The notes under the pieces were generated by a model, which did no database searches, was not told the DNA's origin, and saw only the letters and a list, made by a program, of their open reading frames with translations. The position numbers and the translations under genes were made by a program. Positions 50,501 to 64,000 of a stretch of 64,000 nucleotides of DNA are shown here, in pieces. Origin of the DNA: Zasmidium citrigriseum (taxonomy: Eukaryota; Ascomycota; Dothideomycetes; Mycosphaerellales; Mycosphaerellaceae); NCBI GenBank assembly GCA_002786025.1, contig NHNW01000030.1:372001-436000 (forward strand), written 5' to 3'. Every line of letters begins with the position of its first letter. Positions within the stretch are counted from its first letter, which is position 1.

Positions 50501-51219
50501 GGTAGTACGGCAGTCGTGTCCCTGCTTCTTGATACCGGCCTCGGCGACCCAGAAAGATACGACCATGATGAAGCCACGCCGCTCTGGTATGCTGCCAGGA
50601 TGGGATTTGCAGACATTGTTTCGCTCCTACTACGTGCCGGCAGTATTGACGCGCAGATGCGACACAGGAAGCCTTGGGACTGGTCTGACAGTCAAACCCC
50701 TTTGCAAGTTGCTGCGAGTCGGGGACACCACGAGGTCGTTCAGATCCTTCTCGATGCTCTTAGTGAGACTACTTGACCGATTGCTTTGGCACAGACCCAT
50801 CACCTCTCGCAATGGCGGCTCGCGAGGCACACGAAGGCATTTTACAGGTTATCTTATCCTCGGTGAAACTCAACGTGGATCTCAGTCCCACCGCTTTCGA
50901 AGCAGCCAAGAGAGGGTTTGGAGCGGTATTCAGGGTATTTATGACCACAGTAAAAGTCAAGTTGGACTACCGCTCCGACAATGAAGCTTTGATGTTGCAT
51001 GCGGCGGTCGCTGGAGGTCACGAGCACATGGCGAAGCTAATCCTCCACGAGCAACGTACTGATGTGAATTACCGAGACGAGGATGGATTTACACCCCTTC
51101 ACAAAGTCTTTGACGCCGCACAAGATGCACGTAACGCTGAGTGTCTCAAAAATGGCTGTTTTGCTCGCATCGTGCATGCTTTGTTGGCGACTGGAAAGGG
51201 CGGCAGCCTGGACGTTTGA
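47578..51219 (+). pseudogene. PNP-NACHT-ankyrin NLR-like gene, frameshifted in the ankyrin region
   Basis: Exons 47578-48544, 48601-48852, 48958-49540 and 49612 onward; introns of 56, 105 and 71 nt. Exon 1 encodes a nucleoside-phosphorylase-like (PNP_UDP) domain (VGIGAGVATKDNDIRLGDVV, CFEMEAAGLVDTFPCLVIRG). The Walker A motif GHQGAGKTT is rebuilt across intron 2, and Walker B is LVLDALDEC. Ankyrin units start near 50.4 kb (GKTPLHLAAIHGSTAVVSLL). The frame stops at 50774-50776, while ankyrin homology continues at once in another frame (DCFGTDPSPLAMAAREAHEG) to a stop at 51217-51219. A 32-nt GTGAGA...CACAG segment would restore the frame but is too short for a usual intron. Fungal NLRs of this type act in non-self recognition and cell death. 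The gene ends about 20 bases before the transition to RIP-mutated DNA. Confidence 0.8.
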
Positions 51220-52111
51220 GTTTATCAAAACGTTTGTCACCTGATCACCTCAACCCTTTAGTTATCTAATCACCTCCTTAGCTCAACCCTCTGCTCTTCT
51301 AATTACCTTCTCGCACCTCTGCTTGTCAATCTATTACCCTTTTAATCTAAGCGTTAATAAGTTATTATTGTTTCTATATACGTTCGTTATATAACGCCTT
51401 CTTCTTTAATCTATAAAGTATACTATTATTAATACGTATACCTTTTATTCTACTATATATCTATTATCTATCGCCCTTATTAAGCTACCGCCCGCCTCGC
51501 TACTCTACGTATTACTAGCTACTACTACTATCGCCGTCGCTACTACTACTACTAATATAATATATTAACGTTATAGCAGGGCCTAGGCTCGGCTCTAGGA
51601 GGCAACACCCGTAGTAGTAGTGGCCGAACTAGCTAGCGGCTCGAAGAATCGCTCTAAATTAGAGCCTTTAGTAAAGGGTACCCCCTTTAGCTTATCTTAA
51701 AACGCTATAGAAGGCTAGAAGCGGTGTGTATGTAACCTATAGGCCGTATAGCTATAAATATCTAGCTATCCACGAAGAAGAAGCTTAGAAAAGCCGAGCT
51801 TAAAGAAGGTTAGGTAACCCGTTATAGCCTAAGGTAGGCTAATAGGATCTCCTACTATATACCTCCCCTACTTAGAGAAGTCGTGCCCTTACGATAGTAA
51901 AGGAGTGTTAAATCGCTCGTAAATTATCGCAAAAACCATCAAAACGCCTAAATTTTAAAACCTAGAGTCTAACTATCCTTCGCGTAGCGCGCGAAGAAAC
52001 GCTAGTAACTATATAATCTATTAAACCTATATACGCCTTAATCTAGCGCCCTTATCTATTAATCTATGCCCTAAAACGCTTAAATTAACTATCTATTAAT
52101 CCCTAAGGTCC
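51220..52111. other. transition from unique DNA to RIP-mutated DNA
   Basis: Up to about 51330, CA and TG are still common, with short repeats such as ATCACCTC. From about 51340, TA-rich, CA/TG-depleted sequence begins. I read no frame here; it may be the end of the element or an unrelated degraded repeat. Confidence 0.6.
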
Positions 52112-55100
52112 TTAAAAACCCGAATCTCTAGCGTCCTTCTTACCCTTACTCTGTAGAGTTCTCCTTAGCTTAGCTAGCTCTTCGATAGGCTCTCTATTAG
52201 CTCTAAATAACTATATATCCTTAGTAGTAGGCTTGCTAGTCTCCTTCTTGCTACGCGGCTTCTTCGTAGGCGCCTTCTTCGGCGTCTTTGCCTTCTTCTA
52301 AGACGAAGACTAGCTCTAGCTAGTACTAGCTAAAGTACTAGATCGAGTAGTTCTACTAGTCGAAACGAGCTATAAGTTAGTCTCCTCGTTACCGAGATTA
52401 TCGTTATTCTTAGAGCTAGCTCTAGCGGCCTATATAGAGGTAGCTAAGACGTTCCGAGCCTACTACGAAGGTCTAGGCTTCTTAGGGTCTAGCTATAGCT
52501 CGAGTCCTTAGCGGTAACGCTAAACTCTATACTTAAAGAAGGGTAAGTCGGCCGTATTATTTAAGTATAAGTTAGACTAGTCCCTTACCTACTAATTTCC
52601 CCTCGGCTCCTTAGCCTTACGCGTCTCCTATAATATACTAGTATTAGACGAGTAGCTCTAGTATAGTAGTAACTCCTTAGCGGCGTACTCCTTTACGGCG
52701 TAGAAATCGCCTATATCTACTAACTCTTCTTAGATTCGCTCTCTAGGAAGCACTCGGAAGCTCTTTTCTTCGATCTTAAAGCTATTATAGGCGTTAAGAC
52801 GAGCGGTATCTCTACGAACAAGACTAGTAAGTTCCTCGAAGAGTTCTCTAAAGACTAGTAAGTTCTCCTAGCGAATCTTAATAATTAGAGCGCGGCGAGC
52901 TTCGTCGTCTTTACTAAATAGTACTACTATATCCTTTGTAGTCGTCTAATAGTCCTAGCTAGCTCTATTAAGTAGAGCTCTCGTAATAGGTAGAAGCTTA
53001 TAGTATAGGAACGATATAGGGTAGGCTAGTAGAGCGGTAGGCGAAGGAGGGTACTTAAGGTTATCTCTAGTAGGTAGGAAAGGCGGCGGAGATAGCGTAA
53101 TATTAGCTTCTCGAACGTCTCTAACGTACTTTAGGCCTCCAAGTATATAGCTATCGTTAATAGGTAGAAAGCGAGTAGTATACTAAACCTAAGAGGTATT
53201 CGGCGAGAAGTAGATATTAACGCGTAGCGTACGTACTTTAAAGATACTAACGTTACTAAAGAGATCCCTAGTAAGCTTCTATAGAGGTACTCTAGTTACG
53301 GTAGCCTATAGGTACAGCCTACTAAAGGGTATTTCCTTATAACGAGAGATCGTTAGCTTTATAGTTATAGCTAGATTCGCTCTTATTATGTCGGTTACGA
53401 CTAGCTTGTAAGTGTCCTTAGACTAGCTATTTATAAATCTATTAACGACTACTAAAGACTTATTATCGAAGCTAGCTAGAGGCTTTAGAGTAATCTTTCT
53501 AGCGCTAGTCTTCTAAGGCTTAACCGCTTCTACGCCCTAATTATTATAGCCTATATAGATAACGAAATCGCGAAGAGTATCCTCGCCCGCGGCCTTAATG
53601 TCTACCTCTATATACTAGAAGGTAATATCTATACGATAAGACGTGTTATTCTTATATAGCTCGAAAGGTTACGGGTAGGCGATAACTCGGTAATTCTTAC
53701 TCTTACTAAGGCAAACAGAAAGAATATAAAGCGCCGGATCCGCGGAGATAATCTAGCTAATTAGACTATAGTAGGAGTTTAAAATTACTAGCTCTAAGAA
53801 GAATCTAGGTACGTAAGACCGTATCCGAGAAAGAAGAAGAGTATAAGACGAGATCTTAGCGCGTACTAGTTCTAGCTAGTTTATAGTATTAATAACCGTA
53901 GTACTAGACTTAGCTAGCTAGTTCTAGAGCTAAGGGTAGAAGCTCTTAAGAACGTAATTAATATCGGCTATCGCGGGCCAGAACGTTAGATCTATATCCG
54001 AGGGTATAAAGCTATTATATAGCGTATAACGGCGCCGAGTAGGAGCTACCTCGATCGTAGAACGAGTAAGAAGTAGCTTATTCTTATCCGGATCCTTAAG
54101 GAAGTTAAGGAAGTAGGTACTAGACTCTATACTCTTAAGCTAGTTCGTTAGAAAGCCTCGAATCTAGTCGCTATCTACTCTAGTTAAAGAGTCCTTCGGA
54201 TATCTAAAGGGCTATAATACTTTCTTAAGATACTACTAGTAGGGATAAAGAAGGCGCTTCGAAATAGCCTAGAAGAACTCCCGTAGACGGTACTAAGCTC
54301 TATCGTAATCTAGGGGAGGTAGATTAACCGCCTAAGTTACTATCTATTAAAACTTCTAAGTATTAATAGTCTTATACTTAGGGCTCCTCGTAGGTAAGTA
54401 TCTATACGGCTCTAACTCGTAGAAGGCTTACTTATAGTTCGTAGGAACGCTAACGGGTATAGAGTTACTATCGCTAGTATTAGGAAGCTAATCGAGGTCG
54501 ATAAGCGCTACTATTAGCGCCCTAGAATCTAGTTCTTACTAAGGCGGGTCTTCTTCTATATCTTTATCCTTAGGGTTAGGGGTAGGAAGATTATCTCGGC
54601 TAGTACTATTAATCTTACGAAGGGACTCGTTAAGATCTCCCTCGCTATCGTTATTATTCTTAGTCGATAGGAGCGCCTAAGATTCGGGTTCTAGGGCGGG
54701 CTTAAAACGAGTACTTCTTCGCGTACTACGCGAAGAATCGTTAGGTAAGGGGCCTATACTATCGAAGAGGTTATTAAGGTCGATAACGGCCTTCTTCTTA
54801 CCCTTCGAGCGTAGCGCCGTAATGTTAAACTCCTCCTAAGTATCGACTATCTCTTCGTCCTTATCCTCGTTATTATCGTTACCGTTTAGGGTAGGTAGAG
54901 ACTTCTAACGCTAAGGTAACTACTAAGTCTACGTCTTAGGCTCTAGCTAAGAGTCCTCGATAGAGGGCTAGATATCTTAAGGTTCGTCCTCGTTATTAGT
55001 ACTAGGCGGGGCTACTAATAGCGTCTTCGAGCTACGGATCTATAAGTTTATAGTCCTAGACTTCTTATTAGGACTCTAGTAATATAGTAGCTTAATACGG

Positions 55101-55225
55101 GTAAAGGACTCCTTTAACTTCTTAGGACTCTCCTCGCTCTAAGTAATAGTATAACCTAGCGCCTATAGACCAACCTACCTATAGTCGCTAAGTAGGTAAA
55201 GGAGCTAAAGAAGGGTTATAGGCAT
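52112..55225 (-). pseudogene. RIP-degraded frame g1, about 1037 codons
   Basis: From ATG 55225-55223 to TAA 52114-52112 the length is a multiple of three, and test segments along it (near 54.6, 53.6 and 52.3 kb) are in the same frame. It is interrupted only by TAG/TAA, mostly at positions expected from CAG, CAA or TGG. The N-terminal third is acidic and Ser/Asn/Asp-rich, the middle is globular-looking (for example DIKAAGEDTLRDFVIYIGY), and the C-terminus is Lys/Pro-rich (KTPKKAPTKKPRSKKE), as in nucleic-acid-binding tails. No family recognised. Palindrome 1 lies about 410 bases upstream. Confidence 0.6.
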
Positions 55226-55631
55226 TAGATCTTAATAGAGGGTGTAACATAGCTCTATTAGTAGGTTCGGATGTACGGAGGTATTCGTGTATATAGAGGT
55301 GCTTCCGAAGGAAGTTATAAAAGAAGAGAAGAAGTTTAGTATATAGGATTTTACTGTATCTATCTATGTCGCATATTGTACAAGAAGCTAGTCGTATGTA
55401 TATAAAGTAGGTGTCGTAATTATAATAAAGGTACTCGCTACTCGGAGGTTAAAGGTAGGCGCTTATAGCCTCGGCATTTGCCGTAGAAGCTAGCTAGCTA
55501 GCCTATATTCCCTCCCTTACTATAAGTCTAACCCGTAGACTTACACCTTCATACCTAGAAATTAAACGCAATCCAACATAGAACAAAGGAAAATATTAAT
55601 TAGAAACCTTAATCTATAGTACTATCTATAG

Positions 55632-55658
55632 CGTTTACACCCTAGCGGGGTGCGAACG
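55632..55658. promoter_or_regulatory. palindrome 1 of the 27-bp family
   Basis: Left arm CGTTTACACCCTA, centre G, right arm CGGGGTGCGAACG. The left arm differs from the consensus only by C-to-T and G-to-A changes. It lies upstream of g1 and ten bases beyond the stop of g2. Confidence 0.8.
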
Positions 55659-55667
55659 ATAACTAGC

Positions 55668-58600
55668 TTACTCTAGTATATTCCCGTCCTTATCTACAGC
55701 TACACCGTCGTCGTTAATGAAATTGCCTTCTAAGATAGATAACTCCTCGCCTTCTAGGAGTTCGGGAATAGGCGCCTCGAAAGTAGCTAGTAACCTACTA
55801 AAGTCCCTATTATTATTAAAGTAGGAGTTATTACCGAAGGCCTTCTTCTCTATTCCCTAAACGACCGCCCACTTCTTATGGAATTTATTCGCAGCCGTAG
55901 TACGATACTTACGAAGCTAGATTAACCACCTAAAGTTAGCGTTATTCGGTCTAGCGTTATAGTGCTCCTATAACATACGGTACATCTTATACTAGTTATT
56001 AATAACTATCGGATCGGACTACCGACGCTAAGTAATTAACGCATTACTAATAGGCTAGGTCGAATCTATCTTAATCGTAGCCGGAAAGCGGAAGGGAATC
56101 TTACCGAAGATATTAGCGAATCTAGAAGGTGTTGCCTTTAGAGCTACGAGATCGCGGTAAGACGCATTTAGATTAGTCTAGCTACTACTACCGGGAATCT
56201 CAAGTGCTTCTCCTTAAGGATCTACCTTAACGAGCTAGGGGAACAAGTTGATTCGCTCCTTAGTCTACTTTTAGGCACCGTATAGTAAAGAAGGCATAGA
56301 AATTCGAACATCGAGTTTGCCGTATAGAATAGGCTTCTAGTTAGTATCGTACTTCTTAGCGTCCTTAGGCGTCTATATCTTCTTATTAATAGTCTTAATC
56401 TTAGCTTTAGATTATAGCCCTCGGCGCTCTTTAAGTAACTTTACCTAGGGATCCCACTTCTTACGCTTGTATATACTAGGGATAATAATAGTGTAGTTAC
56501 TAGTATCTTCGGCTAGAAGAGTAAGCGAGCCCTATATTATATTCTACCTACCCTTAGGGGTGTGTATACGCTCGATATTAAAGTCTAAGTAGCGGAAGGC
56601 TTAAGCCCCTATATTGCTCTCCTTAGTACTACTAGCTATATATTAATCCTTAATATAGTAGGAGTATAACACTAGGGTAGGGCAAGAGTCCGGGCGTAGT
56701 AGTATATAGAGGAGGTAGTAGATAGGGTTAGTCCTTATTAACTACTAAATCAATCCGTAAACTATAGTACGTCCCTATCCTAGGTTGTACTTCTCTCGAA
56801 TTAAGCGCTAGTGCTATCGATACATCCGTACCTTATCTATAGTAACATCGTAGATAGTATTCCTAGCTAAGGCTAGATTATTTCTAGGGTTCTTAGCGTA
56901 GAAGGGACTCTCCTACTAGTTGAAGAGGCCTTTCAAGGTGAGGTTGCCGTTCCTCTCCTAGTTGTCCTTACTTAGTTCGCCTACTACATACGAAATAGCT
57001 AGGGCTAAGTTTAGAAAAGGAATCTTCTAGCTCGTAGGTATGTTATGTGTTTGGGCCGTAAAGCGATAGGGACCGAGAGTATTAGAAGGGACGTTAGGGC
57101 GGTAAAGTATATCGAACTAGTTAGGGTTCTAGCGGCGGAACCTATTAAGGTTGTCTTTAGTAGTAACTATAGCTCTAACCTTGCTCGTTAAGGTAGCGTA
57201 GTTACCTTGTTAGTTTAGCATTCCTAGGATTCTACTTATGAATAGTCGTAAGTAATTATAGTAGAGTAGGCTCGCGTGTTAGCGCTTGCCGTTCTCGTTA
57301 TAATCCTTAAGATACTACCGGACTTAATTATTAGTAAACTTCGGCTTATTCTTATTAGTATAATCAATCTAAGCGATTAGGGCAGTATCTACGAATCCTA
57401 GGCACTTGTTATAGATCTAAGACTTCTTATTGTTAGGTAATAATATACCGCTGTAATTAGATACCGTAGGGGAGTTACCGAAGGTGCTAGAGGTAGGACG
57501 AGAGAAGTTACTAGAGCTAGATTAGGGGAGGTTTCCTAATCCAGTACGAGGAAGGCTAGAGTTAGTTTGGCTATAGCTACCGGAGCGAGGGGGGGTAGGC
57601 AATTATTACGTAGGCGTAACTTAGCTAGAAGTAGGGTTACTCTTCGGACGGTTAGGCAAGGCATTAGATATAGAGCGCTAGTAACTAGGTCGAGGAGGGT
57701 TCTAACCCTATCCTAAGTTTAAAGGTAGTAGCTTCGTACGAGGGCGTAGATTTCTAGTAGGACCTTGTTAAGATAGAGCGGGCTTCTCTTGAATCGAAGG
57801 AGGAGTAGGGTTAGTATTAGTTCGAGGACGGCCGCTAGTAGGAGGAGGTCCTCGCTGCTTACTCTAATTTAAGGAGCTAGTATTAGGTGCGGGTGTCTAA
57901 GACTCTTCCCGGACACGAGGATCGACTAGATAAAGAAACTAATCTTCCGAGTACAGTCCGAGGTTGTTCTTCGTTAGCTAGTCTTACACTTCCGCTAAGT
58001 TGAGATCGATAGCATTAATAAGATACTTCTTCTTACTATTATCGATAGTATCTAGATTAGTCTACTCGACCCGATAGTTGTTACTTAGGCCACCCTTACC
58101 TTTACGATCTATAAGTCTCTAAACAAAGGCCTTACTAATACGAGGAGCGACTACCTTCTAATCCTTATAACTAAGGATAAAGGTAGTAAATTCCTTCTGT
58201 CGCTAAGGCGGTACGCTAACGTCGAGGAAGAACTATATAAAGTAACGCTTAAGGGGTAGAGATAGCTAGGAAGCTATAGCCTTCCTTAATACTATATACC
58301 GATTACGAGCCTTTTCTCCCTATATTAATACTTTGTCTAGTACCTTATACTTGCGACGATTAGGCGCTATATTGGCAGCTTTCTTAACACGGTCTACTAT
58401 TTCTAGTATACCGATAGACCGCCCCTCGATAAAGTAGTTAGCACATACGTAGATAAAGTTAGTAAAGTTAGTCTTGTTCTCGTCGCTTAGAGTCTTAAGG
58501 AAGTCGCTAAGCTGATCCAAGTTCTTGTTAAGTACGCTTAGGGAGTCGTCGGTAACCGAGGGGAATTAGCGGTCGCGGAAGTCTCTAATATAGTCTATAG

Positions 58601-59069
58601 ACCTAAGGAGTTACGACACCTTAAGCTCTCCTAGCTTTACGAGACTATTAGCTAGATTAGAGCTAGTTAGTGCGGCGGGTATTAGCGCTCTACCTCTAGA
58701 GCGCGCTATAGTGTCGGAGTAGGTAGAAGGTAATAGGGTTGTCGGTAGGTATTCGGTAAAGTCGGTAAGAGTAGAACTATTAATAGAGGAAGAGCTCGAA
58801 GAAGTCGGAAGGTTCGAGGTGCTAAAGGCGGTAGTATTATCGGTGTTGTTGAAGTTAAGAGGTTAGCGGAATAGAAGGGGGCTTAAGTACCTATAGCGGT
58901 AGCTAGCTTTGCGGGCTAAGCTACTATAGTTATACGCGGCATCTTTAGCAAACTATGAATATTTGCGCTTCTAAATTACTCGTGTAGGTTCCGCGTGTTC
59001 TAATACCTCGTAACTAGCTAGCTATGCTGCAATACGTACTATATATAGCAGTTAATCGGATAGCGGCAT
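55668..59069 (-). pseudogene. RIP-degraded frame g2, about 1133 codons
   Basis: ATG 59069-59067 to TAA 55670-55668 is 3402 bases, a multiple of three, and one frame can be followed throughout with only TAG/TAA interruptions. The first 60 residues look globular, then comes a Ser/Thr-rich segment, a central Pro/Arg-rich linker near 57.6-57.9 kb, and a large C-terminal part rich in Asn, Tyr and Arg that ends acidic. No known domain recognised. It is flanked by palindrome 2 (137 bases upstream of the ATG) and palindrome 1 (just past the stop). Confidence 0.6.
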
Positions 59070-59205
59070 ATCGAGAGCTAGTATTATGAATCCGGAAGCG
59101 AGAGGGTCTAGTTTAGTTCTTAAGCGAGAAAGGCGATAGTAGCATCGTCCCCGTATATATACGTAGCTTATAGAGTCGCATAGGTAGCTAGTTAGGGAGG
59201 TTAGG

Positions 59206-59232
59206 CGTTCGCACCCCGGCGGGGTGCGATCG
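59206..59232. promoter_or_regulatory. palindrome 2 of the 27-bp family
   Basis: Left arm CGTTCGCACCCCG, centre G, right arm CGGGGTGCGATCG; one mismatch between arms. It is the best preserved copy, 137 bases upstream of the g2 ATG, and is followed by GTGAAAGCG. Confidence 0.85.
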
Positions 59233-59323
59233 TGAAAGCGATATCTAGAGGCTAACTAGTTAACTATAGGTTCTCTAATTTAGCTAAAAATAGGTACCCT
59301 ATTAAAAGCCTGTCCTACAATCC

Positions 59324-60154
59324 TTAGAACATCCCTAGTATATACCTATTTATAGCGGGAGTGCCTACGGGGTTAAGCGGGGACAAGACTTAGACCTAAT
59401 CGTCTAGAATAGCGCTAAACTCTAGGCGTTATTGTCGGAGAGGAGGATCTAAGCTAGCTACTATTCGGAACGTAGCCCTCTATCGGTAGTCTAGTGCCTA
59501 AAACAGCACTAATTACGGGTCGGGGGAATTAATAAGGAGCATCTTACGCCTATCGATTTGTCGAATACGCGAGCTAGTTCTAATAATAAAGGTTAGGCTA
59601 GTAGCGGTTCTAGGAGTTCGTCTAGCATAGTCGTTAGTATGTCCGAGCCGATAGATTAAGCGGCGAGAATCTCGAGATCTAGGGGTAGGGTGTCTTCGCC
59701 GATTCTCTAGCTCCTATTATAGATCTACTGTCTAACGCCTCTATATATTGCCCTTAGTAGTATATTTAGCAAGTATCGTCTCCTATAGCTCGATCTCTTC
59801 TTGTAGTAGTTGTAGTTCGGCGTCGATCTCACCGGTATTAAAGCGTAGGTGTCTATTATTATCGCGTTAATTACTAGCGCCTCTCTACATAAGCTAGATA
59901 ATAGGCGTTCGAGGGCGACGCTAGGCGAGGCGTAGTTTAACAATATCGATTCGGTATCGTTCTCTAAAGTCCGTAGGAATCGGTTAGGTTAACTACTAAG
60001 CGACTTCTTCTTCCCGAGCTTGAATATAGCGTAGCTAAGTCCTATTATGTTCCAAGTATTCGATTAGATCCTCAATTTCGCGTACTCGCTATCGACGAGT
60101 TTCCTGTATAGAGAGAGAGGTAGACGGCAACCGGAGGATATAGTTTCGTTCCAT
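59324..60154 (-). pseudogene. RIP-degraded frame g3, about 276 codons, coiled coil
   Basis: ATG 60154-60152 to TAA 59326-59324 is 831 bases in one frame, checked codon by codon near the 3' end. The N-terminal half is Glu/Arg/Gln-rich with coiled-coil character (EIDAELQLLQEEIEL at about 59.8 kb); the C-terminal half is basic. Stops inside are TAG/TAA only. No family recognised. Palindrome 3 lies 167 bases upstream. Confidence 0.55.
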
Positions 60155-60320
60155 CTAGAGCTCTAGAGATTTAGTCTTAATAACTAATATCAATTTCCCG
60201 AATGCGGCTATAGCGAAGGATATAATCTATATCGTTTAGATATAAGTAGCGCGTATACCGAGAGAACATGCCTTCTAGCCGAGCGGGGTTATTATAGATC
60301 GTCTAGGGATTCGTTTATTA

Positions 60321-60347
60321 CGTTCGTACCCCGGAGGGGTGTAAATT
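60321..60347. promoter_or_regulatory. palindrome 3 of the 27-bp family
   Basis: Left arm CGTTCGTACCCCG, centre G, right arm AGGGGTGTAAATT. It lies between divergent frames g3 (minus) and g4 (plus). Confidence 0.75.
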
Positions 60348-60559
60348 ATAGGAGGTACTAAGCTACCCTAGTAATATAGTGCTATTGCGGAAGTAGCATT
60401 CTAGAATCGATAACACACTTCGGAGGATCCTCGATAAAGGTAGGGAACTCGTCTTATCCAGATAGGAAACTAATAAAGTAAGACTAGGGTAGAAAGGGGA
60501 AGATACAATATAATCTTCCCGCATTACATAGATAACGGGAATACAAATAGATATAATAA

Positions 60560-61413
60560 AGGAAAGAAGGAGAAGGTAGAAGTAAGCTATTTTACTAGTA
60601 GACTTGAAGTTAGAGGCTCGATATAAGTAGCAAACAGCCGCTACTATATATCCTATCCATGCCCCTATCCTTAATTCCTAGGCCTAAAGTTATCTATGCC
60701 TCCCTAAGCTTAAGGCGTTAGAGTACCTATCCCGGGCTAGGCGGATAACCTTACGACAGCAATTCGATGTTGCCTTTATTATGTTAGCGGATACGAACTC
60801 GCTAGACTAGCTATAGGCCTATTATACGATCGACCTCCTTACGACGACGCTTTAGATTAGCATAGCGGCGAGAGAGATCGGCTTTATACTCTGTCTAGTT
60901 TATAACTATACCGCGGCGGACCCTCTAGCGAATATCCGTCTATAGCTAGCTAGGGAACGAGTAGGTGCTAGGCGCTAGTATTACTAGAGGTAGGGTACCG
61001 AGACGGAAGATAGACTAACGACTATCGAAGGCGCGAGGATTAGGCTAGGTGCGGCGGCGTTCTAGATCTTACTATATGCTAAGAGTCTAGCGTCCTTAGA
61101 AGTCGCTATTCGCGCGATACTTATTAATAATACAGGCTTGTAGATAAGTATTAGAATAACCCGCTTAAAGGGACAGGTAGATCTCGTTAAGGTTAAAGGC
61201 GGGGTTAAGCTCCCCGTTTCTCTAGTTCTGTGCGCCTATACGTAGTAGGCGGACGACGGAGATGTTTAGCTGAGTAGTAAGGATACGGGGCTCGACTGTA
61301 TTGGCGTAATACTACTATCTCTCGGTAGTAGAGAGTAGGCGATACTAGCGACTAAGGAAGGTCTACTACTACTCGTTTATTATCTAATTGCTATCTTGAG
61401 TCTTATCGTATAG
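60560..61413 (+). pseudogene. RIP-degraded frame g4, plus strand
   Basis: A coherent frame with TAG/TAA interruptions, ending near 61411-61413; the start is approximate because RIP removes ATG (to ATA). It includes AREIGFILCLVYNYTAADPL near 60.9 kb and a C-terminal hydrophobic stretch (GLLLLVYYLIAILSLIV). It converges with g5. No family recognised. Confidence 0.45.
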
Positions 61414-61935
61414 TAGATCGTCTAGCTCCTTATCTATATCTATTAGTAGGCGGCGGGTACGAGAAATGTCGCTAATACGGCGCGAGGTAGCTTCTATGTA
61501 GGCAAGATTTCCGCGGCTAGTATAGGCATTCGAGTATAGATACTCTATCTCTTAACGGAGCTTAGTATACTCGAGGCGGATAACTTCTTTTAGAGCGCGG
61601 ATATCGCTTATGTTAGCGGTATTAGCGGAGGCGATCCTCGTACGATAGGCGTTTAGCTTTTAATAAAGCTCTCGCGGCTTTAGAGGAAGAAGGCTTAGAT
61701 CCGTCGCAAAAGGTACGAGTCGTAGTACGACGCGGAGAAGGTTAATATTCGAGTAGCGGCGGGAAGTTATACTAGCGATAGCCGCTAGGCCCAATTAGGA
61801 AATTACTACATATAATCTATTAGAAGCCTTTAGTTCTAGACCTAGTTACTCTAGTAATAACTTTAGATGCACCGACAATCTGCGAGTATTACCTAATAGC
61901 GTAGAGTCGGCGTAGGTACCGGGTAGCGGCGGTTC
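61395..61935 (-). pseudogene. RIP-degraded frame g5, coiled coil
   Basis: A frame readable from just left of palindrome 4 down to about 61.4 kb, rich in Leu, Arg, Glu and Ser, with helical, coiled-coil-like content (DIRALKEVIRLEYTKL at about 61.6 kb). The start codon is not identifiable. It converges with g4. No family recognised. Confidence 0.45.
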
Positions 61936-61939
61936 TAAC

Positions 61940-61966
61940 CTTTTATACCCTAGTAGGGTGCGATCG
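61940..61966. promoter_or_regulatory. palindrome 4 of the 27-bp family
   Basis: Left arm CTTTTATACCCTA, centre G, right arm TAGGGTGCGATCG, followed by TAAAAGTAACTAGC. It lies between divergent g5 (minus) and g6 (plus). The changes from consensus are mostly RIP-type transitions. Confidence 0.75.
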
Positions 61967-62199
61967 TAAAAGTAACTAGCTATTCTTAACATTACTTCTC
62001 CTATAGGTGTGAGACGTAGGCAATAGATACGGGAGTAACGATTAAGAGGAGGGGTAAAGGTTTTTATACTAGAGAGCTCTAAACTAGAAGGCTCGCGGAG
62101 AAGAAGTAGCTATTACTATAAGCTAACTCCTAATTCTTCCGTCTAATTCTCCCTAGCAAAACCCCTTTTCCATTCCTTTTATACTTCTTCTAGTGCTAC

Positions 62200-62810
62200 T
62201 CTCCTAGGATATAATCTTATCGTATAGTGCTATCCTTATAGGCGTTTAAGGCGGCGGCGATTAGCCTATATAATACGACTCTAGTCCTTAGCGACTCGAT
62301 TGTTCTCGGGCCTCTCTTACCGAAGTAGGCTATCTAGACTAGCACGACTACGGCGGGTATTCCTTCCTTACGTGTTAAGTCGGCGAACTTAGGCGTCGAT
62401 CTAAGTAGCTTACTAGTTTAGAGGGTTTAGGAACAGTCGGTCAATACTATCGATATTTCTTATAATAAAGTTAGTATTAATAGGAAGTTAAGGACCGTAG
62501 GTAGTGCCGTTAGTACGGCTAGTAGTATTATTACGATAGCCTAGACGATAGATAGAGCGGCGAGATTCGTAGTAGCTAGGAGGGTAGTAAGTGCGACGAC
62601 TCTCGAGCTTACGCTATAGATCGACATCCTAGCGAAGACGGGCGTTTCCTATAATAGTATACTCGTTAAGGATACGTTCCTATAGAGTAATATCTCGTTA
62701 AAGCAGATCCAGATTAGCGCGGATCTCGTTAATATTAAAGCGAGGGCCCGGATCGTCGTCACGCTATCCTCTAGCACCTTATTCCATAAGGCGGAAGATC
62801 TAATGCTATA
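62200..62810 (+). pseudogene. RIP-degraded frame g6, plus strand
   Basis: A coherent frame (for example LRVKSANLGVDLSSLLV at about 62.4 kb) with TAG/TAA interruptions. It is rich in Ser, Thr, Val and Ile, suggesting beta structure. Ends are approximate. It converges with g7. No family recognised. Confidence 0.45.
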
Positions 62811-62814
62811 GACG

Positions 62815-63460
62815 GGAGGCCTATAGTCTTAGTTCTACTACTCGAAACATATAATCCTCGGTAACCGTAGTAGGAACAACCGTCGCTCCTAGGTGAGCGG
62901 CGAGGTAGTCGCGGATAAAGGCGTCTATAATGTCCGACATTCTATTCTATTTACCGATTAGAGTAGAGCGGATCTAATCCTAATCTATCTTAAGGTGCTC
63001 GATAGTATTCTTAATATCGCGGACACGCTATTAGCGAGCCTCTTGCTCGTAGCCGCTATTCATAGGCAAGCTAAGGATATAGTTACACTCTAACTAGAGC
63101 TCCTTAGACTTAGTCTCTAAGACTAATTCGACGGCTTCGAGATCCGATATCTTAGCGAATAGGTAAGGTAGCTATAATAGCGTAGGGTTCGGAGGCGATA
63201 GCTAGTACAATAGCGATCTTTACTAATAGTCGGAGGCGTAGATTAAGTTACCGCTTAAAAGTGTCGGTCGTTACGCGGTAGAAGAATAGCTAAAGGCGCG
63301 AGGGTAATAGGAAGTTATACGTAGCTAGCGCTATTCCCAATGCGGAAGTTACGGCTCGTAACTACCTTAGGGGACTACTTTATGTTCCTCGCTCCTCCCC
63401 TTTACTTATTACTACAATCGCAATTCCGGAAGAGCTCGCGGATAGCCGGTACCTATCTAT
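62815..63460 (-). pseudogene. RIP-degraded frame g7
   Basis: A frame readable from about 63.46 kb to about 62.82 kb on the minus strand, with TAG/TAA only as interruptions. The C-terminal part contains a helical segment (KNTIEHLKI) and an ATG at 62939 (MSDIIDAFIRDYLAAHLG). No family recognised. Its 5' end abuts palindrome 5. Confidence 0.45.
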
Positions 63461-63493
63461 TACCGAGACTATAGCTAGTTTCCTACCGTTAGA

Positions 63494-63520
63494 CGTTCGC
63501 ACCCCGCTAGGGTATAAACG
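63494..63520. promoter_or_regulatory. palindrome 5 of the 27-bp family
   Basis: Left arm CGTTCGCACCCCG (perfect), centre C, right arm TAGGGTATAAACG, followed by TAAAAGTA as after palindrome 4. It lies between divergent g7 (minus) and g8 (plus). Confidence 0.8.
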
Positions 63521-63589
63521 TAAAAGTACGGGAATTGTCGATATCGTAATCCCTAGGAGCGTATAGAGATCCGGCATATAATAAAGACG

Positions 63590-64000
63590 TCGTAGATAGT
63601 AATAAAAGACGTGTACGCGTAGACTATCGTCTATCTATAAGGAGTATATCGAGGAAGATAAAGACGGCGACTAGGACTACGAGCTAGCGCGGAAGCGAAA
63701 GCCTATATCGTATAAGAGCACCCCGTTAACTTCGGCTTACGCGCGATCTAGGGAGTAATAGGTTTCCAAAAGCATATAGCCCTTAGTTATAAGGCCGATG
63801 TAGTAAATAGGGTAACAAGCAAGAATTTCGAAGAAAATCTAGCTAGTCGTACCTCTAGTACTCTTCCCTTTCTTTAGAGCTTAGCCGCGGGAGGCTTAAC
63901 TACGGATAAGCGATACCTAGCTTAGCAAACCGTAGGTCTTCTTCCTTAAGGTTATTATTATCTTCCAGTTTATCTTTATCTTCGGCCTTAAATAGTCGCG
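63590..64000 (+). pseudogene. RIP-degraded frame g8, cut by window edge
   Basis: A plus-strand frame starting near 63.59 kb with acidic and basic content (YKEYIEEDKDGD, then DYELARKRKP) and several TAG/TAA. It runs to the window edge with a hydrophobic stretch near 63.95 kb. Start and end unknown, family unknown. Confidence 0.35.

What the first reader, a model, noticed from the sequence alone, without database searches (positions are those of the whole stretch)
55632..63520. A 27-bp palindrome repeated five times marks the upstream side of every frame in the RIP-degraded element
Copies at 55632, 59206, 60321, 61940 and 63494 share a strict 13-1-13 layout (CGTTCGCACCCCG, one base, CGGGGTGCGAACG). 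Each lies upstream of a degraded frame (g1, g2) or between two divergent frames (g3/g4, g5/g6, g7/g8). I saw no copy at the convergent junctions g4/g5 and g6/g7. That distribution fits a promoter or activator site shared by all genes and argues against a terminator. A short flank, TAAAAGTA, follows copies 4 and 5, with a similar run after copy 2. A common cis-element for many genes is typical of a self-contained genetic system such as a DNA virus or a giant mobile element with its own regulator.
Basis: partly seen in the sequence, partly recalled or inferred. Interest (0 to 1): 0.88.

Follow-up and report, generated by a model that had tools for sequence, protein, structure and literature searches.

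The report
Palindromes punctuating a giant fungal retrotransposon
The five palindromes are real and belong to a large, mutation-riddled retrotransposon of a fungus, where a palindrome of one type stands at almost every gene border and differs from family to family, which hints at a switch that the element once worked with a protein of its own.

Summary
The five palindromes exist at the stated places, but only 59206 is near-perfect. They lie in the 3' half of a 17.1-kb, RIP-degraded LTR retrotransposon of Ty3/gypsy type on the minus strand (contig 444269 down to window 55150). It is not a DNA virus. A full family-1 copy holds seven palindromes: before gag-protease, pol and four accessory genes (C, D, E, F), and between F and the 3' LTR. 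The genes run one way; the reported divergent pairs are wrong, and 55632 lies after a gene, not before one. The genome holds 163 such places (2 for the reversed control). Three families carry three palindrome forms. Family 3 shares 87%-identical gag-pol with family 1 but has a different F, and its palindromes, also those before gag and pol, are of its own form. All three families share one nucleus, so a host factor explains this poorly. I favour a DNA site for an element-encoded dimeric protein (F the best candidate) that marks the edges of internal transcription units. The identity is secure; the mechanism is inferred (0.45). RNA hairpin punctuation and homogenisation remain open. No functional test was possible.

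The parts
55150..64000 (-). 3' part of a family-1 LTR retrotransposon; the whole copy is contig C73:427150-444269 (17,120 bp) and runs on beyond the window
   Evidence: LTR pair, target duplication CTAT
55150..55507 (-). 3' LTR, 358 bp; the 5' LTR is C73:443912-444269
55146..55149 (.). target-site duplication CTAT, other copy at C73:444270-444273
55632..55658 (.). palindrome s7, between F and the 3' LTR
55668..59204 (-). unit F (accessory gene, unknown family, broken); stop codon 55668-55670, start not fixed
59206..59232 (.). palindrome s6, before F
59233..60320 (-). unit E (related to C at DNA level), broken
60321..60347 (.). palindrome s5, before E
60348..61939 (-). unit D, broken
61940..61966 (.). 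palindrome s4, before D
61967..63493 (-). unit C, broken; no counterpart in family 2
63494..63520 (.). palindrome s3, before C
63521..64000 (-). stretch after pol; conserved pol coding ends about 450 bp before s3, pol itself continues beyond the window

Best explanation
The window ends in the 3' half of a RIP-degraded 17.1-kb Ty3/gypsy-type LTR retrotransposon with six co-oriented genes (gag-protease, pol, C, D, E, F). Seven copies of one palindrome stand at the gene borders, one more than there are genes. Shown: the element, its LTRs and target duplication, the sites, their near-constant offsets in separate copies, and family-specific palindrome forms. Inferred: the palindrome is a DNA site of two inverted half-sites (about GGGGTGYGAA) bound by a dimer of an element-encoded protein, most likely F. 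Bound at each border, it would start and/or insulate transcription of the internal genes, so that the accessory genes need not depend on the long LTR transcript alone. When a lineage changed its regulator, the sites of that lineage changed with it.
For: 163 places against 2 for the reversed pattern; family-3 form 30 against 0, strict family-2 form 10 against 0. s1 and s2 lie within 2 and 5 bases of the same offset in six copies, s3, s5 and s7 within about 120 bases. Near the sites the families 1 and 2 are mostly unalike (identity about 0.3-0.5) while coding parts are alike. Family 3 against family 1: gag-pol 87% over 6.7 kb, F only in pieces at 57-62%, yet palindromes before gag and pol are of the family-3 form; two outer pairs differ on both sides together in 8 of 9 family-3 site copies. 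At s2 change is concentrated: 9 transversions in 27 bases and 12 in 60 flanking ones, against 401 in 10,112. G.U and A.C mismatches are equal in gene sense, 67 and 63 in 47 site copies, as for a DNA site with no preferred strand.
Against: No protein-DNA binding, promoter or transcript was tested. F has no recognised DNA-binding domain. s7 has no gene after it, and pol's frame is open through s2 with no ATG or ATA between s2 and conserved pol in the three copies printed, which speaks against a promoter for pol. Family 3 shows no site at the C/D' border. The spacer between half-sites is 2 or 3 nt within family 3, unusual for a rigid dimer site. In family 2 only 3 of 6 sites of the C73 copy have the paired A...T outer bases. 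At s1 the concentration of change is weaker (2 in 26, 7 in 59), and at s3 the whole border is diverged, so it is no evidence there. The equal mismatch count mostly reflects RIP. Concerted forms could also come from homogenisation.
Confidence: 0.45

Rival explanations
1. RNA punctuation: in the full-length sense RNA each palindrome is a hairpin that is cut or bound, releasing single-gene messages (or allowing re-initiation). One more hairpin than genes is the natural count for cutting both ends of every message.
For: n+1 sites for n genes in families 1 and 2; 3 of 5 window copies fold better than shuffles as sense RNA (z -4.1, -3.0, -2.7); a spacer of 2 or 3 nt suits a loop.
Against: 2 of 5 window copies do not fold better than shuffles (z -0.4, -0.2), though RIP may be the cause. 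No excess of G.U over A.C in gene sense (67 to 63). Recurrent unpaired positions at s1, s4, s5 and s6 in separate copies. Family 3 lacks one site.
Confidence: 0.22
2. Homogenisation without a partner protein: recombination or gene conversion between the sites of one element keeps them alike and spreads a new form through the element; the sites are also hot spots for gene exchange, so genes behave like cassettes.
For: Family 3 is a mosaic whose likeness to family 1 ends 76 bp from s4; unit C is absent from family 2, with sites on both sides in family 1; the ACTTTYACG flank is shared by s3, s4 and s6.
Against: Sharing hardly goes beyond the palindrome at most sites; no recombinase found in A-F; only one exchange point was seen near a site, and it is not inside it.
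Confidence: 0.15
3. Host regulator or silencing site: a host protein binds the palindromes, as an activator, insulator or silencing mark.
For: The sites are dyad-symmetric and isolated in intergenic DNA.
Against: Three families in one nucleus have three forms, each repeated through its element; places of the near-perfect pattern that were listed lie on contigs that carry the element.
Confidence: 0.1
4. Packaging or replication signal of the genomic RNA or cDNA, present in several copies and confined to gene borders because coding sequence leaves no room elsewhere.
For: Sites run from the leader to just before the polypurine tract.
Against: Families 1 and 3 share gag-pol at 87% but not the palindrome form; Gag or RT would be the expected partner.
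Confidence: 0.08

Closest known systems
Ty3/gypsy LTR retrotransposons of fungi (PMC3248453, passages seen)
   Same: LTRs, polypurine tract, gag with protease, RT then RNase H then a weak integrase match
   Different: 17 kb; four accessory genes after pol; a palindrome at most gene borders; that paper describes two ORFs as usual
Plant LTR elements with additional ORFs, such as Grande and Retand (PMC7264820, PMC11963269, passages seen)
   Same: long stretch between pol and 3' LTR with extra genes; gene23 of Grande has a promoter of its own
   Different: the Grande gene is antisense; no palindrome at gene borders is mentioned in the passages seen
Giant retroelements: Burro, Ogre, Terminons (PMC6431247, passages seen)
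   Same: far larger than the usual retrotransposon, with extra coding capacity
   Different: other hosts and other extra domains; no repeated border palindrome in the passages seen
Foamy virus internal promoter and Tas (PMC7390438, passages seen)
   Same: works like, if the reading is right: an element-encoded DNA-binding protein acting on an internal promoter
   Different: Tas targets have little sequence likeness; here seven like palindromes; no protein relation shown

Membership tests
Ty3/gypsy LTR retrotransposon | paired LTRs and target-site duplication | tested here: met
   358-bp LTRs; CTAT on both sides; the interrupted reading frame continues over the joined flanks
Ty3/gypsy LTR retrotransposon | reverse transcriptase and RNase H | tested here: met
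   RT_RNaseH above cut-off in three families' copies; RVT_1 at 0.0012 to 2.6e-6, below cut-off; 66 RT relatives, up to 49% identity
Ty3/gypsy LTR retrotransposon | integrase after RNase H (order RT-RH-IN) | tested here: inconclusive
   rve in the right place but E 0.025, below cut-off, in one of two copies; likeness by eye
Ty3/gypsy LTR retrotransposon | gag and aspartic protease | tested here: inconclusive
   Asp_protease_2 E 0.0098, below cut-off
Ty3/gypsy LTR retrotransposon | primer-binding site | not tested
   sequence after the 5' LTR seen, no tRNA match attempted
Large DNA virus or virus-derived element | DNA polymerase, capsid or packaging genes | tested here: not met
   no such Pfam match in A-F; LTRs and RT instead; broken genes could be missed
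Starship giant transposon | tyrosine-recombinase captain (recalled from memory) | tested here: not met
   no such Pfam match in A-F; LTRs instead
Internal promoter with own transactivator (foamy-virus-like control) | element protein binds the internal site and activates transcription | not testable with these tools
   only the family-wise matching of F and palindrome form

The most novel reading that the evidence does not exclude
A retrotransposon that runs its own regulon: internal genes are separate transcription units, bordered by one palindromic operator read by an element-encoded dimer (F), with a family-specific cis-code so that families living in one nucleus do not cross-talk. An element that swaps its regulator must rewrite all its sites.
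Probability: 0.3. Interest if true: 0.82.

Novelty: new variant of a known kind. Interest (0 to 1): 0.6.

Why it matters
LTR retrotransposons are usually taken to express their genes from one LTR promoter. A 17-kb element with six co-oriented genes and an operator-like palindrome at most borders suggests virus-like internal gene control in a fungal retroelement. Three co-resident families with three palindrome forms make co-evolution of site and protein directly testable. RIP has broken every copy of F that was scored (27 of 27), which may be why such elements are easily overlooked.

Tried and rejected
DNA virus: rejected (LTRs, target duplication, RT). Starship: no captain-like match in A-F, LTRs instead. 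Divergent promoters: rejected by coding strand. Palindrome as a translated N-terminal tag: in family 1 it is in the same frame for gag, D, E and F but another for pol and C, and in another frame for F of family 2, so I take it as chance. G.U wobble as evidence for RNA: TTTA arms can arise by RIP from TTTG or TTCA, and counts are equal. Half-sites in the LTRs: none seen in the first 1.7 kb and last 0.9 kb of one family-1 and one family-3 copy beyond the palindromes; the others of the 12 and 11 half-sites were not listed. CT-rich tract about 150 bp upstream: mean C+T 0.62 in that bin over 18 sites, elements 0.51; one of 22 bins, weak, not used. Relatives: F none (7991 candidates, low-complexity words may have crowded them), D none, IMG/VR none, solved structures only one hit at E 0.22 for the first 380 residues of F. 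Pfam was run on 8 of the 13 translations and on pol of two other copies. Papers: searches listed nothing that I recognised as this; titles and abstract starts only, apart from the five papers named; subscription journals are mostly not held.

Limits: of the 163 places only exact matches up to contig C90 were listed. The 41 LTR matches are a lower bound. The fetched C6:1-20000 holds 3,735 N. The 5' LTR of the family-2 copy lies beyond the contig end. Family 3 s1 was read in one copy. The host was not identified.
Full report
What is there. The last 13 kb of the window are RIP-degraded: TA/AT about 1.5-2.7, few CA and TG, G+C about 0.40-0.45 against about 0.55 before. The RIP-tolerant core TTYRYAYYYYRSYRRRRTRYRAA occurs five times in 51001-64000 and in none of 200 Markov simulations. 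In the 44.4-Mb genome it occurs at 163 places with up to 1 mismatch, against 2 for the reversed pattern.

The element. On contig C73, of which the window is 372001-436000, 358-bp repeats lie at 443912-444269 and 427150-427507. They start TATAGG and end TTATA, as a RIPped TG...CA would. A polypurine tract precedes the 3' copy. CTAT flanks both ends. When the flanks are joined, the frame with 7 stops in 120 codons on one side meets the frame with 7 stops on the other; the other frames have 12-17 (the script's setting cut three bases beyond the exact junction, which keeps the frame). LTR matches number 41; eight pairs are 17.1-17.25 kb apart (C73, C13, C57, C90, C5, C76, C96, C140) and three 15.83 kb (two on C6, one on C75). 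LTR pairs differ almost only by transitions: 22 and 1 transversion in C73, 21 and 2 in C13, 21 and 0 in one C6 copy.

The genes. A scorer trained on native genes with simulated RIP of 11 segments of the C73 element on the minus strand and 11 of 12 of the C90 copy in sense. Unit A resembles gag with an aspartic protease (E 0.0098, below cut-off). Unit B is RT and RNase H, the latter above cut-off. In family 3 the order RVT_1, RNase H, rve is seen, with rve only at E 0.025. RT relatives reach 49% identity. C, D, E and F match nothing in Pfam. C and E match each other (59% over 692 bp); D shares a short stretch with them by eye. A 353-residue part of F has 27 matches in the genome, 16 at 76-100% and 11 at 24-36%; all 27 contain stops.

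The sites. In gene sense a full family-1 copy has s1 before gag, s2 before pol, s3 before C, s4 before D, s5 before E, s6 before F, and s7 between F and the 3' LTR: 7 of 7 in C13 and C73; in C90 six in the stretch held and the seventh. The window holds s3 to s7. F stops 9 nt before s7 in family 1, 14 in family 2 (where the stop may be RIP-made) and 10 in family 3. The family-2 copy has six sites for five genes. Family 3 has five sites for five genes, with none seen at the border of C and the next unit.

Three forms. Family 1: CGT-TCGCACCCC...GGGGTGCGA-ACG. Family 2: AGT...ACT in 3 of 6 sites of the C73 copy, the other three mixed. Family 3: ATT...AAT in 8 of 9 site copies, with 2 or 3 nt between the C run and the G run. 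Family 3's gag-pol is 87% identical to family 1 over 6.7 kb; F aligns in three pieces at 57-62%. Families 2 and 3 share F at 59% over 3.4 kb, while gag-pol of 1 and 2 is 64% identical. So family 3 is a mosaic; its likeness to family 1 ends 76 bp from s4. At s2, change against family 1 is concentrated in the palindrome and its flanks (9 of 27 and 12 of 60 transversions, 401 of 10,112 overall); at s1 it is weaker (2 of 26, 7 of 59); at s3 the whole border is diverged and says nothing.

How it may work. The three families share one nucleus, so a host protein does not readily explain three forms. An element-encoded partner does, and it should differ between families 1 and 3: D, E or F rather than gag-pol or C. 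F is the one found in all three. This leans to a DNA site with two half-sites, though RIP makes it a weak test. A promoter alone does not explain s7; a terminator alone does not explain s1, which follows a 1.1-kb leader without coding signal. A border element that acts on both sides, or RNA punctuation, explains one more site than genes. The pol frame is open through s2 and no start codon follows before conserved pol, which fits a Gag-Pol fusion and speaks against a promoter for pol. I hold the mechanism at 0.45 and the identity of the element at above 0.9.

Comparison. Extra genes after pol are known in plants, one with its own promoter (PMC7264820, PMC11963269, passages). Giant retroelements are known in animals and plants (PMC6431247, passages). 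Foamy viruses use an internal promoter driven by their own Tas protein (PMC7390438, passages). None of the passages seen describes a palindrome repeated at the gene borders of an LTR element.

Noticed in passing
window about 52000-55145 and C73:444270-447900: The element sits inside another RIPped repeat with a long minus-strand reading frame of unknown family, which continues over the joined flanks. Part of it (C73:424917-425811) is 95% identical to DNA next to a family-3 copy on C6.
   Followed up: partly
window about 55508-55545, and matching places in families 2 and 3: AAGTCTACGGGTTAGACTT, a short hairpin-like sequence just before the polypurine tract, is nearly the same in the three families.
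   Followed up: no
C73:439483 and matching sites on C19 and C6 (gag/pol border): A second small inverted repeat just before s2 seems to change on both arms between families (by eye).
   Followed up: no
C73:447941-463410 (L021, L022): A family-2 copy, about 67% alike in pol, lies 3.7 kb beyond the 5' LTR of the window's element and runs off the contig end.
   Followed up: partly
palindrome centres in the window and other copies: CCCCG often reads CCCTA, so CpG as well as CpA seems to be mutated in these repeats.
   Followed up: no
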